DNA of 36,324 nucleotides from Okeania hirsuta (lineage in GTDB: Bacteria; Cyanobacteriota; Cyanobacteriia; Cyanobacteriales; Microcoleaceae): positions 1 to 36,324 of the forward strand of contig NZ_RCBY01000058.1 of assembly GCF_003838195.1 (NCBI RefSeq). The letters are read 5' to 3'. The position numbers were made by a program, and so were the translations under genes. The notes beneath the pieces are model-generated. The model made no database searches and had not been told where the DNA came from. It worked only from the letters and a program-made list of their open reading frames with translations. This document shows positions 22,129-26,426 of this stretch, in pieces (positions within the stretch are counted from its first letter, which is position 1; every line of letters starts with the position of its first letter).

Positions 22129-22623
22129 ATGTTAGAAAAAGAAAAAATAGCACTAACATTAAAAATTAATGGAGTGCAACATCATCTAGAGATAGAACCT
22201 CGCGTGACTCTGTTAGATGCACTGCGAGAATATCTAGGTTTAACAGGGACAAAAAAAGGATGTGATCGCGGAGAATGCGGAGCTTGCACGGTATTAGTCG
22301 ATGGAAAACGCATTAACGCTTGTATGACTCTGGCAGTAATGCAAATCGGAAAGTCAATTATTACTATTGAGGGTTTAGCAGAAGAAAATGGACAACTCCA
22401 CCCAATGCAAACAGCTTTCATTGAGCATGACGCTTTTCAATGTGGGTATTGTACTCCCGGTCAAATAGTTTCCGCAGTAGGTTTACTAGCAGAAACACAA
22501 CCAAAGTCAGATCGAGAAATTCGGGAAGGTATGAGTGGCAACCTTTGTCGCTGTGGTGCTTATCATCATATCGTTGCAGCAGTTCGTGAAGTAGTGGAGA
22601 AAACAGAAAATGCAGCCATTTAG
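22129..22623 (+). CDS. Molybdenum hydroxylase small subunit, two [2Fe-2S] clusters (PaoA/XdhC-CoxS type)
   Basis: A 164-residue electron-transfer subunit of a xanthine-oxidase-family enzyme. It passes electrons from the Mo site to the FAD subunit. The plant-type cluster ligands are Cys45, Cys50, Cys53 and Cys65 (GCDRGECGACTV and INACM). The Mo-proximal cluster uses Cys105, Cys108, Cys140 and Cys142 (QCGYCTPG, NLCRCGAY). E. coli PaoA has a Tat signal; this one starts directly at the ferredoxin fold, so the enzyme should be cytoplasmic. The gene overlaps the FAD-subunit gene by 14 bp, a sign of translational coupling. No clear Shine-Dalgarno or promoter could be read in the repeat-filled region upstream. 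Confidence 0.93.
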   Translation: MLEKEKIALTLKINGVQHHLEIEPRVTLLDALREYLGLTGTKKGCDRGECGACTVLVDGKRINACMTLAVMQIGKSIITIEGLAEENGQLHPMQTAFIEHDAFQCGYCTPGQIVSAVGLLAETQPKSDREIREGMSGNLCRCGAYHHIVAAVREVVEKTENAAI

Positions 22624-23626
22624 TTATGCCAGAGTTAATGAAGAAAATACCGCCATAAGCACAGTTTCTCAGGATGAGACTATATATTTTATTGCTGGTG
22701 GTACAGACTTAATAGGTTTAATTAAAGATGGCGTACAAACACCAAAGCAAGTTCTAGACATCAACTCTCTGTCTTTAGACTCAGTGGAAGTCGATGCTGA
22801 CAACAACCTCCGTATCGGTGCTTTGGCAAAATTGAGCGATGTTGCCCGTTATTCCACAGTGAAAAATTCCTATCCTGTCATTTCAGAAGCAATATTAGAA
22901 AGTGCTTCTCCTCAACTGCGGAATATGGCAACAGTGGGAGGAAATTTATTACAGCGTACCCGTTGTAATTATTTTCGCGACCCAGTTTTTCCTTGCAACC
23001 GTCGTATTCCAGGTACGAGTTGCCCTGCTATAGAAGGTTACAATAGAATGCACGCTATTTTAGGTACGAGCGAATATTGCATTGCCACTCATCCTTCAGA
23101 CTTGGCAGTAGCATTAGTTGCTTTAGGTGCAGTAGTTTGTATTCAGGGTAAAACTGCACAACGTCGAGTGCCGATAAATAATTTTTATCTTTTACCCGGG
23201 GAAACACCCCATCGAGAAAATGTTTTAGATCATGGGGAGTTAATAGTTGCTGTAGAAGTACCTGCTGTTTCCTGGTTTAGCAACTCCCACTATCTCAAAG
23301 TACGCGATCGCGCCAATTATGAATTTGCCCTAGTTTCTGTAGCTCTTGCTCTGGAAGTTGAGCAAAATATTATTAAGTCTGCGCGACTAGCATTAGGAGG
23401 AGTTGGTACAAAACCTTGGCGTTCCCAGGAAGCAGAAACAGCATTGCAAGGAAAACCGATAAATGAAGCAACTTTTTCTACGGCAGCAGAAGTAGCTTTG
23501 GCACAAGCAAAACCACAACAACATAACCAGTTCAAAATTGAACTAGCTAAACGTAGCATTATTCGTGCGCTGTCAACTGTATTACTTAGGAGTCAGGAGG
23601 CAGGAAAGAAGAAGAAACAGGAGTAG
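22610..23626 (+). CDS. Molybdenum hydroxylase FAD subunit with extra [4Fe-4S] motif (PaoB type)
   Basis: A 338-residue CoxM-like FAD subunit. FAD-binding motifs are AGGTDLIGLIKDG (29-41) and ATVGGNLLQ (107-115). Between them and THPSDLAVAL it has the insert RTRCNYFRDPVFPCN...GTSCPA...SEYCIATHPSD. Its Cys119, Cys129, Cys138 and Cys157 match the arrangement that binds an additional [4Fe-4S] in E. coli aldehyde oxidoreductase PaoB (family knowledge); xanthine dehydrogenases of the CoxM type usually lack it. This points to PaoABC-like aldehyde oxidation rather than purine oxidation. The natural C-terminus is near residue 323. The last residues (RSQEAGKKKKQE) are encoded by AGGAGTCAGGAGG-type repeats. 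The following 586 bp of mobile-element debris separates it from the Mo subunit. Confidence 0.9.
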   Translation: MQPFSYARVNEENTAISTVSQDETIYFIAGGTDLIGLIKDGVQTPKQVLDINSLSLDSVEVDADNNLRIGALAKLSDVARYSTVKNSYPVISEAILESASPQLRNMATVGGNLLQRTRCNYFRDPVFPCNRRIPGTSCPAIEGYNRMHAILGTSEYCIATHPSDLAVALVALGAVVCIQGKTAQRRVPINNFYLLPGETPHRENVLDHGELIVAVEVPAVSWFSNSHYLKVRDRANYEFALVSVALALEVEQNIIKSARLALGGVGTKPWRSQEAETALQGKPINEATFSTAAEVALAQAKPQQHNQFKIELAKRSIIRALSTVLLRSQEAGKKKKQE

Positions 23627-23681
23627 AAGGAGAAAGTTTTTTGTTTGCTGGCGTACAACGCATCCTATCTCCTAATGTTAG

Positions 23682-23759
23682 GAGCCGGATGAGCTGGAAA
23701 CTCTCAAGTCCGGTTTTGAAACAGAGGTGAGGGATAGTGATATCCCCATCGACTGTAAC
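23682..23759 (+). mobile_element. Group II intron 3' end (domains V and VI)
   Basis: GAGCCGGAT (23682-23690) pairs with the GTCCGGTTTT strand (about 23709-23717). This forms a domain V with the catalytic AGC triad at 23683-23685 and a GGAAAC-type apical loop. Domain VI follows: ACAG (23721-23724) pairs with CTGT (23753-23756), GGTG with CATC, and GGGATA with TATCCC. This leaves an unpaired A at 23752, seven nucleotides before the 3' end ...GTAAC (23759), matching the branch-point rule and the AY ending. Domains I-IV and the intron protein are absent. Confidence 0.8.
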
Positions 23760-24082
23760 TATCCAAGTTCTCAAATATGTTCAAACTGTGGGCATCAACA
23801 GAAAATGCCGTTAAACTTGAGAACTTACGTTAGCGGAGCTTTGCGTTAGCAAATGTAGTGAATGCGGTTTTGAAGCTGACAGAGATTTTAATGCTGCTGT
23901 CAACTTGAAAAACTATGTGTATAAGTAGCTTGAGTTCCAAGCGAGTTTAAGCCTGTGGAGAGAATAAGTTACAGACTGCGGTCAGTGGTTCTCACAGAAG
24001 CAGGAAGCTAGCTCCAAAACCCTATTGGATAAGTTTGGGTAAGTTTAGTAGAACGGAAGAAACAATAAGAAACCCCCAGTAG
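23760..24082 (+). pseudogene. Decayed IS605-type tnpB, C-terminal part only
   Basis: Directly after the intron 3' end the sequence reads YPSSQICSNCGHQQKMPL, the first half of the TnpB zinc ribbon. After a 22-nt insertion (23832-23853) the frame shifts to CSECGFEADRDFNAAVNLKN, the second CxxC plus the RDxNAAxN RuvC-III motif (Asp is a catalytic residue of TnpB). A stop and a further frameshift precede a tail with ACGE. There is no upstream RuvC-I/II, so it is dead. TnpB is an RNA-guided nuclease of IS200/IS605 elements. The intron appears to have inserted in the tnpB zinc-ribbon region. Confidence 0.85.
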
Positions 24083-24212
24083 AAGGAGAAAGTTTTTTGT
24101 TGAGCTGGCGCACAACACCTCCTTTCGGCATGAAGGGCGCAAACGTTAACGGTTTTGCTTCGCCAAACGCAAAAAAAATAACTATTACGAACTATTTAAG
24201 TAAACACCAAAC

Positions 24213-26426
24213 ATGAACAAAGTTATCGGAAAACCCATCAACCGTGTAGACGGAAAACTTAAAGTTACAGGTGGCGCACGTTATACCGCTGATATGCCAG
24301 TTGAAAACTTGACTTACGGCGTATTAATAGAAAGCACCATTGCTAAAGGCAAAATTACCAAGCTCGAAACTATCGCAGCAGAAACCGCCCCCGGAGTATT
24401 AGCAGTTATTACCCACCGCAACGTTCCCAAATTTAATCAAATTACTTTTTTTCCTGGGGGACAAAGTCTCCCCATTCTCCAGGATGAGAATATCTATTAT
24501 CAAGGACAGCACATTGGGATAGTAGTTGCAAAAACTTTAGAGCAAGCTCAATATGCAGCTACCTTGGTTAAAGTCGAATATAAAATTGAACAACCAATTA
24601 TAGATATAGATACAGCACTCCAACAGGGATATAAACCAGAAAGAATTTTTCTGGATATGCTACCCGCTCATTCCTTCTGGGGCGACATTAACTCTGGGCG
24701 TTCCCAAGCAGAGGTATTAGTCGAACAAACCTACAGCACCCCCGTAGAACATCATAACCCCATGGAACCTTCAGCAACTCTAGCAGTTTGGGAAGATGAC
24801 CGTCTCACCCTCTACGATACAACTCAAGCAGTCTCCTTAACACAAGAAACCATCGCCAAAGTATTCGAGATACCTCCAGAAAACATCCGAGTTATTTGTC
24901 AATATCTCGGTGGTGGATTCGGTTGTAAAGCACTTATTTGGCCTCACACTATCCTGACTGCCCTGGCAGCGCGTTATGTTCAGCATCCCGTTAAACTAGC
25001 ACTCACCCGCGCCCAGATGTATACTTCTGTGGGATACCGCCCCCCGACTCGCCAACATCTGACCCTTGGTGCAACTAAAGCAGGCAAACTTACACTCATC
25101 AAACATATTGGCGAAAACATTACCTCACCCTTTGACGAATTTGCCGAAGCAGTTGCAATGGCAACAAATATGATATATGCCTGCCCTAACCTGGACACCA
25201 ACTACAATCTCGGTTCTATCAATACTAGTACTCCCACTTTTATGCGGGCACCGGGGGAAGCAGCAGGAATGTTTGCCTTAGAGTCAGCAATGGATGAACT
25301 TAGTTATGCTCTAGAATTAGACCCTATCGAACTCCGCCTCCGCAACCATGCAGATGTAGAACCTGCTACCGGACATCCATGGTCGAGTAAATCTCTCAAA
25401 GAATGTTATCAGCGAGGAGCAGAAATATTTGGTTGGAAACACCGCAACCCTAAACCCGGTTCTATGAGTAACGGCGATCGTCTCATTGGTTGGGGAATGG
25501 CAAGCGCTACTTTTCCAGCAAATAGTTGGCCTGCCAATGCTAAGGTAACTATATATAATAGTGGGAAAATTTTAGTCGAAAGTGCAACCCACGACTTAGG
25601 TACCGGCACTTATACTGTGATGACTCAAGTGGCAGCAGAGGTTTTAGGGGTATCTCTAGAACAGGTGGAATTTAAACTCGGTGACACAAATTTACCTAAA
25701 GCTCCACTAACAGGAAATTCGACTACAGCAAGTAGTGTGGGTTCGGCAGTACAAGCAGCAGCAATCAATGCTCGGAATAAAATATTAGAGATAGCAGTTT
25801 CTGACTCAGACTCTCCACTGTATCAAGCAAAACCAGAGGAGATAATTTTTGATTCAGGGAAATTATTGTTGCAAAATAATCCTACTTTGGGGGAAAGTTA
25901 TCAGGAAATTCTCACTCATCATGGTGGGGAAAATATTGAAGCGGTTGGTGATAATGCATCGAAACAGAAACAACCAGAATATGCTAAACATTCTTTTGGG
26001 GCAGTTTTTGTGGAAGTGCAAGTAGACCGACTTTTGGGAGAAGTGCGGGTGAAGCGGTGTGTTGGTGTCTACGGTGCTGGACGTATTCTCAATGCGAAGA
26101 CTGCCCGCAGTCAAATGATAGGCGGTATTACTTGGGGTATTGGTATGGCGTTGATGGAACATACGGTAATGTCTCCTCACTATGGTCGCATTCTCAATCA
26201 TAATCTTTCTGATTATTTGATACCCGTGCAGTTAGATGTGCCGGATATTCAGGTGCAGTTTGTAGAGGAGGAAGATCCTTATGTGAATGCTTTGGGTACT
26301 AAGGGTATTGGGGAACTTTCTCTAGTAGGTGTTGCAGCAGCGATCGCTAATGCTGTTTATCATGCCACAGGTAAGCGTATTCGAGATTTGCCTATTACTC
26401 CAGATAAGTTATTAGAATCAAGTTGA
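24213..26426 (+). CDS. Molybdenum hydroxylase large subunit, Mo-cofactor binding (PaoC/XdhA-like aldehyde oxidoreductase)
   Basis: A 737-residue catalytic subunit of the xanthine oxidase family that hydroxylates aldehydes or N-heterocycles with water as oxygen source. It begins with the family opening GKPINRVDGKLKVTGGARYT. Moco-binding segments include QYLGGGFGCK, FMRAPGEAAGMFALESAMDE, and DLGTGTYTVMTQVAAEVLG with the later GNSTTASSVGSA. The catalytic glutamate is Glu701 in TKGIGELSLVG, near the C-terminus as in PaoC. Length agrees with PaoC (about 730) and the FAD partner is PaoB-like, so an aldehyde substrate is likelier than xanthine (inference). The start follows a repeat-derived leader with no clear Shine-Dalgarno. 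Heptamer repeats begin right after the stop. Confidence 0.93.
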   Translation: MNKVIGKPINRVDGKLKVTGGARYTADMPVENLTYGVLIESTIAKGKITKLETIAAETAPGVLAVITHRNVPKFNQITFFPGGQSLPILQDENIYYQGQHIGIVVAKTLEQAQYAATLVKVEYKIEQPIIDIDTALQQGYKPERIFLDMLPAHSFWGDINSGRSQAEVLVEQTYSTPVEHHNPMEPSATLAVWEDDRLTLYDTTQAVSLTQETIAKVFEIPPENIRVICQYLGGGFGCKALIWPHTILTALAARYVQHPVKLALTRAQMYTSVGYRPPTRQHLTLGATKAGKLTLIKHIGENITSPFDEFAEAVAMATNMIYACPNLDTNYNLGSINTSTPTFMRAPGEAAGMFALESAMDELSYALELDPIELRLRNHADVEPATGHPWSSKSLKECYQRGAEIFGWKHRNPKPGSMSNGDRLIGWGMASATFPANSWPANAKVTIYNSGKILVESATHDLGTGTYTVMTQVAAEVLGVSLEQVEFKLGDTNLPKAPLTGNSTTASSVGSAVQAAAINARNKILEIAVSDSDSPLYQAKPEEIIFDSGKLLLQNNPTLGESYQEILTHHGGENIEAVGDNASKQKQPEYAKHSFGAVFVEVQVDRLLGEVRVKRCVGVYGAGRILNAKTARSQMIGGITWGIGMALMEHTVMSPHYGRILNHNLSDYLIPVQLDVPDIQVQFVEEEDPYVNALGTKGIGELSLVGVAAAIANAVYHATGKRIRDLPITPDKLLESS

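What the first reader, a model, noticed from the sequence alone, without database searches (positions are those of the whole stretch)
23682..24082. Group II intron 3' end fused to a dead tnpB, wedged inside a Mo-hydroxylase operon
Seen directly: a domain V with AGC triad, a domain VI with an unpaired A seven nucleotides from a GTAAC end, and from the next base the TnpB zinc-ribbon sequence YPSSQICSNCG. Established: group II introns end in AY with the branch A 7-8 nt upstream, and TnpB carries a CxxC...CxxC ribbon plus RDxNAAxN. Inference: an intron once inserted in a tnpB, both were carried into the gap between the FAD and Mo genes, then everything 5' of domain V was lost. Two mobile elements of different chemistry are preserved as a fossil junction.
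Basis: partly seen in the sequence, partly recalled or inferred. Interest (0 to 1): 0.75.

Follow-up and report, generated by a model that had tools for sequence, protein, structure and literature searches.

The report
Dead intron tail inside dead tnpB
In a marine cyanobacterium of the genus Okeania, the tail end of a self-splicing RNA parasite (a group II intron) still sits at the exact spot where it had interrupted a jumping-gene nuclease gene (tnpB); relatives carry the uninterrupted gene and the matching front half, so this is a real fossil, but of a kind already known from another cyanobacterium.

Summary
Window 23674-23759 is the 3' end of a group IIB intron: Rfam RF00029 matches at 46.6 bits, and domains V and VI covary across 24 sequences. 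From base 23760 the sequence is the 3' exon of an IS200/IS605-type tnpB, ending at a typical right end near 24057. In five Okeania genomes, 63 pattern matches (reversed-pattern control 2) read straight through this point (RF|YPSSQ). Two tnpB copies in Okeania sp. SIO3B5 carry the same 3' junction; two other loci show the missing 5' junction (tnpB ...GATAGATTT|GTGCGACT...). Two sister genomes lack the insert in the FAD-Mo gap; in one the colinearity stops exactly at 23673. The tnpB frame is broken by a 22-nt repeat that also occurs in intron-free copies. The intron belongs to an ORF-less family of about 880-900 nt, with full-length copies in two further tnpB sites and 6-nt EBS1-IBS1 pairing in 6 of 6 distinct cases. 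Best account: an IS carrying the intron, later cut by a deletion. Precedent: Thermosynechococcus introns at a conserved site in an IS200-family element. New member of a known kind.

The parts
23674..23759 (+). 3' fragment of a group IIB intron: a few nt before domain V, domain V, domain VI and the GUAAC 3' end
   Evidence: Rfam RF00029 46.6 bits at 23680-23759; homology to relatives begins at 23674; colinearity with sister G003 ends at 23673
23683..23715 (+). domain V hairpin with AGC triad
   Evidence: A1 columns 5-38; 4 of 11 pairs with changes on both sides
23721..23756 (+). domain VI hairpin; bulged branch-point adenosine at 23752
   Evidence: A1 columns 45-80; 7 of 13 pairs with changes on both sides; 23752 unpaired in the consensus fold
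23760..23928 (+). tnpB 3' exon (YPSSQICSNCG... DRDFNAAVNLKNYVYK stop), frame broken
   Evidence: 97% DNA identity to an intron-free copy in G002:C36; PF07282 on both pieces; junction at RF|YPSSQ
23830..23851 (+). 22-nt repeat-like insertion that breaks the zinc ribbon frame; also present, with small differences, in intron-free copies in G002:C36 and G003:C313 and in G001:C304
   Evidence: read directly and by alignment
23929..24057 (+). tnpB 3' flank and right end of the IS200/IS605-type element, ...GGGTAAGTTTAGTAGAACGGA
   Evidence: 22 distinct places, the window included, share this end with up to 3 mismatches and then differ
23622..23645 (+). left copy of a 24-nt exact direct repeat (part of a dispersed repeat, not a target-site duplication)
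   Evidence: further near copies in the window
24078..24101 (+). right copy of the same dispersed repeat
22129..22623 (+). 2Fe-2S subunit of a molybdenum hydroxylase (context)
   Evidence: PF01799 E 1.5e-33
22610..23626 (+). FAD subunit (context)
   Evidence: PF00941 E 1.5e-40
24213..26426 (+). Mo-cofactor subunit (context)
   Evidence: PF20256 E 3.1e-60, PF02738 E 9.5e-59

Best explanation
This is the remnant of an IS200/IS605-type tnpB element whose tnpB carried an ORF-less group IIB intron exactly between the codons for RF and YPSSQ. When whole, the intron RNA would splice itself out of the tnpB transcript, helped by a maturase made elsewhere, and could copy itself by reverse splicing into tnpB DNA guided by a 6-nt EBS1-IBS1 pairing. 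The chimeric element landed in the repeat-rich gap between the FAD and Mo genes. A deletion then ran from 23673 to just before intron domain V, removing the IS left end, the tnpB 5' exon and intron domains I-IV. What is left cannot splice or transpose on its own and encodes no working protein. Shown: the identity of both parts, the exact junction, uninterrupted and half-filled counterparts, the absence of the insert in two sister genomes, and EBS1-IBS1 pairing in relatives. Inferred: the order of events, help from a maturase in trans, the EBS1 of this particular copy, and that the intron at this site was ORF-less like its full-length relatives.
For: D5/D6 by covariance model and covariation. 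3' junction shared with two G001 = Okeania sp. SIO3B5 contigs, C304 and C706, whose tnpB exons differ from each other but whose first 127 nt are identical. 5' junction in G001:C58 and G003:C298, both reading ...IADRF|GTGCGACT.... 63 pattern matches to the uninterrupted site in 5 genomes, 2 for the reversed control. Sister G003 is colinear with the window up to 23673 and again from 24055, with 326 nt of repeats in between instead of intron and tnpB; G004 also lacks both. Right end shared by 22 places with different downstream flanks. The full-length relatives are ORF-less: 877 nt in G001:C497, 898 nt in G003:C272. Six distinct EBS1/IBS1 pairs give 36 of 36 positions paired, 35 Watson-Crick and 1 G-U; only 1 of 720 assignments reaches that, the true one. 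Maturase domains (PF08388) occur in 5 of 5 genomes, 5 in the window's own; Y1 transposase domains (PF01797) in 5 of 5, 19 in its own.
Against: No sequence held shows one unbroken tnpB-intron-tnpB at this site: G001 contigs stop inside the intron and G003 keeps only the 5' half. The EBS1 and the length of the intron at this site were not seen. G001:C304 has a damaged domain V with no Rfam hit at E 0.01, so that copy is probably dead too, yet the same 127 nt stand in front of a second, different tnpB exon (C706), which retrohoming of a dead intron would not explain; gene conversion might. G002 has a different, 5'-truncated tnpB ending at the same right-hand point, which could also mean repeated recombination at this spot. 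G001's FAD-Mo gap could not be read.
Confidence: 0.9

Rival explanations
1. The junction was made by recombination between dispersed repeats and tnpB copies (gene conversion), not by an IS insertion at this locus followed by a deletion.
For: A 24-nt exact direct repeat flanks the insert; the gap is full of dispersed repeats in the three relatives that could be read, G002-G004; G002 has another tnpB fragment at the same right-hand point; the two G001 junction copies share 127 nt in front of different tnpB exons.
Against: The right edge coincides with a standard IS right end, and the left edge with intron sequence rather than with the repeat.
Confidence: 0.15
2. The intron was truncated at birth: incomplete reverse transcription during retrohoming into tnpB left only its 3' end, and the tnpB 5' part was lost separately.
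For: Group II introns are copied from the 3' end (recalled), so 5'-truncated copies are possible; the intron fragment is only 86 nt.
Against: Such a copy would have tnpB 5' exon directly upstream of domain V; here the sequence upstream of 23674 is the intergenic repeat found in the sister genome. Other Okeania tnpB copies carried intron 5' sequence at this site.
Confidence: 0.06
3. A split, still working intron: domain V/VI plus the tnpB 3' exon here act in trans with a 5' half elsewhere in the genome (trans-splicing), or the order is circularly permuted.
For: Domain V/VI and the branch point are structurally intact in the window.
Against: No 5' intron end with a tnpB exon was found in the window's own genome: its 2 pattern matches are not tnpB and none of its 10 matches to the full-length intron starts at the intron's first base. 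No domain I-IV match elsewhere in the window. The 3' exon has a frame-breaking insert.
Confidence: 0.02

Closest known systems
Thermosynechococcus elongatus TeI introns, family F4 in ISEL1 (Mohr et al. 2010, PMC2882425; passages read)
   Same: Cyanobacterial group IIB introns, 17 of them ORF-less; families with their own EBS sequences; [quoted passage not shown] one IEP (TeI4c) is reported to splice and mobilise an ORF-less intron
   Different: Here the host is a tnpB gene of Okeania, at the codon junction RF|YPSSQ plus two other tnpB sites, and the window copy is a 3' fossil; whether the T. elongatus site lies in a tnpB was not checked
Trichodesmium erythraeum group II introns (Pfreundt and Hess 2015, PMC4649490; passages read)
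   Same: Another marine cyanobacterium with many ORF-less group II introns (10 of 17 that splice); the host intron there is typed B2 with 5' GUGCGAUUC, the same start as several copies here (GTGCGATTC)
   Different: Transposase, IS200 and IS605 do not occur in its main text, so it reports no intron in such an element
[quoted passage not shown] survey PMC4227781; start of abstract and passages seen)
   Same: A self-splicing intron and an IS605-like transposon in one unit
   Different: A group I ribozyme with the IS attached; here a group II intron interrupts the tnpB gene itself

Membership tests
Bacterial group II intron (IIB type) | Domain V with catalytic triad, matching the family covariance model | tested here: met
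   RF00029 46.6 bits, gathering 40; AGC at 23683-23685; covariation
Bacterial group II intron (IIB type) | Domain VI with bulged A 7-8 nt before an AY 3' end | tested here: met
   A 23752 unpaired, end ...GUAAC at 23759
Bacterial group II intron (IIB type) | 5' end GUGYG and domains I-IV | tested here: not met
   absent from the window; the 5' end is present in relatives at the same tnpB site and in full-length copies. The window piece is a fragment of such an intron, not an intron
Bacterial group II intron (IIB type) | EBS1-IBS1 pairing with the 5' exon | tested here: inconclusive
   36 of 36 positions in six distinct relatives; not testable in the window copy because that part is lost
IS200/IS605-type tnpB element | TnpB domains OrfB_IS605 and Cas12f1-like TNB | tested here: met
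   uninterrupted relative L016: PF01385 2.1e-28, PF07282 9.4e-25, PF12323 3.5e-13; the window pieces match PF07282 only, below its cut-off
IS200/IS605-type tnpB element | Defined right end with varying flank | tested here: met
   22 distinct places, different flanks
IS200/IS605-type tnpB element | Left end and its own Y1 transposase | tested here: not met
   the sequence left of the fragment is intergenic repeat; no ORF of 80 aa or more lies between the FAD and Mo genes; Y1 transposases occur elsewhere in the genome
IStron | Group I intron ribozyme associated with the IS | tested here: not met
   only the group II model matches in the window at gathering score
Circularly permuted group II intron | Domain I downstream of domain V/VI and exon | tested here: not met
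   no significant domain I-IV homology to four related introns elsewhere in the window

The most novel reading that the evidence does not exclude
Okeania carries an ORF-less group II intron lineage that lives mainly off tnpB genes, re-aiming its EBS1 at conserved codons of the RNA-guided nuclease (three sites seen: RHAY|NWGL, KTY|E, RF|YPSSQ). Splicing would then decide whether a TnpB protein is made from a transcript whose 3' end also yields the guide RNA: a group II counterpart of the IStron.
Probability: 0.12. Interest if true: 0.7.

Novelty: new member of a known kind. Interest (0 to 1): 0.38.

Why it matters
It gives an unusually well documented case (uninterrupted site, 5' half, 3' half, sister loci without insert) of a retroelement nested in a TnpB transposon and then cut down to its catalytic tail. 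The full-length relatives in two other tnpB sites suggest that multicopy tnpB genes may be a standing refuge for ORF-less introns in this genus, which can be tested for trans-mobilisation and for effects of splicing on TnpB and its guide RNA. It also shows that a lone domain V/VI hit can mark a fossil rather than an intron.

Tried and rejected
I first took the motif GAGAATCTAGTA of full-length copies for EBS1, because it can pair with CTAGATTT of tnpB (my notebook entry, still says so). I dropped this when copies in unrelated exons carried the same motif; the EBS1 that fits lies just before the motif TTGRTYTCGTATC.

Tandem 898-nt copies in G003:C272 were considered as nested or repeated homing, but a run of N lies in the array, so an assembly cause is not excluded; left open.

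Target-site duplication: the 24-nt flanking repeat is part of a dispersed repeat also present in sister loci and elsewhere in the window, so it is not one.

Wider search: the strict 3' junction pattern was found in 2 of 388 genomes drawn from the order (own 1 place, G001 2 places) and in 5 stretches of genome contigs, 2 of them Okeania sp. SIO3B5; the other 3 (Victivallales, Chitinophagales, Prevotellaceae) have no domain V upstream and I take them for chance matches. The pattern is strict, so diverged junctions would be missed. The 5' pattern search in 61 family genomes gave matches in 51, about as expected of a short pattern; I read 27 loci of them (15 given, 12 fetched; one place occurs twice) and two are tnpB. 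The other listed places were not read. Plasmids: 1 record, covering 20% of the query, D5/D6 side only; phages: no match.

Enrichment for tnpB: 6 of 23 Okeania loci of the family whose flank I read lie in tnpB. This is my hand count over, with the window and C304 counted as two loci, C124/C497 as one and C58 not counted apart; more diverged domain V/VI loci are not in it. The binomial figures assume a tnpB share of 2-5% of the genome and independent loci. Four of the six share one site, so by independent sites it is about 3 of 20, which by hand calculation is P about 0.07 at 5%; the tnpB share itself is a guess, because one search scored at most 150 candidates per genome. Enrichment is not established.

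Full report
What is there. Window 23674-23759 is the last 86 nt of a group II intron and 23760 onward is the 3' exon of a tnpB. Rfam finds exactly one family in the whole window at its gathering score: RF00029 at 23680-23759 (+), 46.6 bits, E 3e-6, complete model. Nine such matches were found in the window's genome (150 of 390 candidates scored). An alignment of 24 sequences, the window included, folds into the known domain V and VI hairpins with an unpaired A at 23752, seven nt before the 3' end GUAAC. Counting pairs on that structure gives 97.7% of 576 cells paired and 11 of 24 pairs with changes on both sides; none of 500 shuffles reaches any of the five measures, and slid versions pair at 39-46%.

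The tnpB part. The two reading-frame pieces 23760-23846 and 23857-23925 match consecutive parts of PF07282, the TNB domain of TnpB/Cas12f, with E 0.0044 and 7.5e-5 (below its curated cut-off, as fragments), while an uninterrupted relative (L016) matches PF01385, PF07282 and PF12323 strongly. Relatives without intron read ...ADRF or APRF, then YPSSQICSNCGHQQKMPL or close variants. The frame in the window is broken by 22 extra nt at 23830-23851. Copies with nearly the same extra sequence occur without intron in G002:C36 (97% identical) and G003:C313 (91%), and with the intron in G001:C304. So this tnpB lineage was broken before, or independently of, the intron. The right end ...GGGTAAGTTTAGTAGAACGGA is shared, with up to 3 mismatches, by 22 distinct places with different flanks, which puts the element's right border near 24057.

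Who it is. G001 contigs C706 and C304 have the lengths and junctions of NODE_734 and NODE_372 of Okeania sp. SIO3B5, and G001 is listed as the same genus as the window's genome, so the genus is Okeania. The window's own strain is not named by any search.

Uninterrupted, half and partner sites. In five Okeania genomes the uninterrupted site GAYMGRTTT|TAYCCNARYTCNCA occurs 63 times with up to one mismatch (4, 18, 11, 12 and 18 per genome), against 2 for the reversed pattern; only some of these were read as tnpB. The 3' junction is found in the window and in G001:C304 and C706, 3 places in 2 of 388 genomes drawn from the order. C304 and C706 are identical for 127 nt, then their tnpB exons part; I read this as a k-mer break of a short-read assembly (inference). 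The 5' junction, tnpB ...GATAGATTT followed by GTGCGACT, is found in G001:C58 and G003:C298. G003:C298 holds tnpB 5' exon plus about 180 nt of intron and then other sequence with an IS right end, the mirror image of the window's fossil. No single contig with both exons around a full intron at this site was found.

The locus. The flanking genes are the 2Fe-2S, FAD and Mo subunits of a molybdenum hydroxylase. The start of the Mo gene was found in 5 of 5 Okeania genomes, with the FAD gene on the other side in G002, G003 and G004. In G003 the alignment with the window is unbroken to 23673 and resumes at 24055; 326 nt of dispersed repeats lie between, with no intron or tnpB. In G004 the FAD side matches to 23595, repeats follow, and the match resumes at 24055, also without intron or tnpB. 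In G002 a different, 5'-truncated tnpB ends at the same right-hand point. In G001 the contig starts in low-complexity sequence just upstream of the Mo gene and tells nothing. The simplest history is insertion of an IS with the intron at ...GGA|AGAAACAATAAG, then one deletion from the upstream repeat to just before domain V. This order is inferred.

The intron family. Full-length relatives are 877 nt in G001 (contigs C124 + C497, overlapping by 24 exon and 103 intron nt) and 898 nt in G003:C272; no open frame of 150 aa or more with the reverse transcriptase motif that I searched for lies in the loci. Their exons are also tnpB. C124/C497 reads IKLPRIGWIKTY|EVLPDNV, in a tnpB that has a stop soon after; C272 reads NTRFVARHAY|NWGLWLTKN. 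So the same intron family occupies three different tnpB sites. A six-nt EBS1 just before the motif TTGRTYTCGTATC pairs with the last six nt of the 5' exon in six distinct cases, four in Okeania and two in other genera (L140, L155): 36 of 36 positions, 35 Watson-Crick and 1 G-U. Of 720 possible assignments only the true one reaches this. Two further copies, L156 and L158, share the ACTGGA/TCCGGT pair of L075. I located EBS1 from the first two cases by complementarity and then checked it in the same register in the others. None of the six EBS1 fits AGATTT (at most 4 of 6), so the intron at the window's site should have had another one, which no held sequence shows.

Mechanism. As for group II introns in general (recalled), the whole element would splice from the tnpB transcript and retrohome with a maturase supplied in trans. 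PF08388 maturase domains are present in 5 of 5 genomes, five in the window's own. Which one serves this family was not tested. The window remnant lacks domains I-IV and should be inert.

Against a richer reading. No 5' intron end with a tnpB exon was found in the window's own genome, no domain I-IV in the window, and the 3' exon is broken, so trans-splicing or circular permutation is unsupported. G001:C304 domain V is damaged and has no Rfam hit at E 0.01, so part of the family at this site is decaying elsewhere too; that the same stretch precedes a second, different tnpB exon in C706 is easier to explain by gene conversion than by retrohoming of a damaged intron. Enrichment in tnpB is suggestive (6 of 23 loci, hand count) but not established when shared sites are collapsed and the tnpB share of the genome is left open.

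Prior work. Mohr et al. 2010 (PMC2882425, passages read) describe T. elongatus group IIB introns, 17 of them ORF-less, in families with their own EBS sequences, with family F4 at a conserved site in ISEL1 of the IS200 family. [quoted passage not shown] My searches of the held library for group II intron with tnpB, Trichodesmium, Okeania, IS605, transposase gene in cyanobacteria, mobile DNAs and IS element, and for TnpB with IStron, listed no paper whose title or shown abstract start describes a group II intron inside tnpB. I read passages of nine papers, none whole, and subscription journals are mostly not held. Hence: a new member of a known kind, cleanly documented.

Noticed in passing
L069 (G003:C272:29500-36500): Two identical 898-nt introns head to tail, plus a third 5' start next to a run of N, inside a tnpB at RHAY|NWGL; could be a real tandem array or an assembly artefact.
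   Followed up: partly
L064 / L192 (G001:C497 and C124): Full-length 877-nt ORF-less intron in another tnpB at KTY|E; the tnpB has a stop codon shortly after the site.
   Followed up: yes
L109 (G002:C226, FAD-Mo gap): A different, 5'-truncated tnpB ends at the same right-hand point (AGAACGGAAGAAACAATAAG) as the window's element, so two tnpB elements hit the same position.
   Followed up: partly
L075, L156, L158, L187: Copies of the same intron family sit after ...TCCGGT, in a repeat-like context (ATATCATGTCCGGT and variants), in Okeania and in other genomes of the family.
   Followed up: partly
L079 (G000:C112:23500-29000): A group II intron with a maturase domain lies in what reads like a DNA adenine methylase gene; G004:C55 has a very similar junction. 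The methylase label is recalled from the motif, not from a family search.
   Followed up: no
L040, L041, L042, L065, L066, L039: Relatives ending GTATC are followed by short palindrome-like sequences and then by AACCCAAC or similar, as if they prefer hairpin sites.
   Followed up: no
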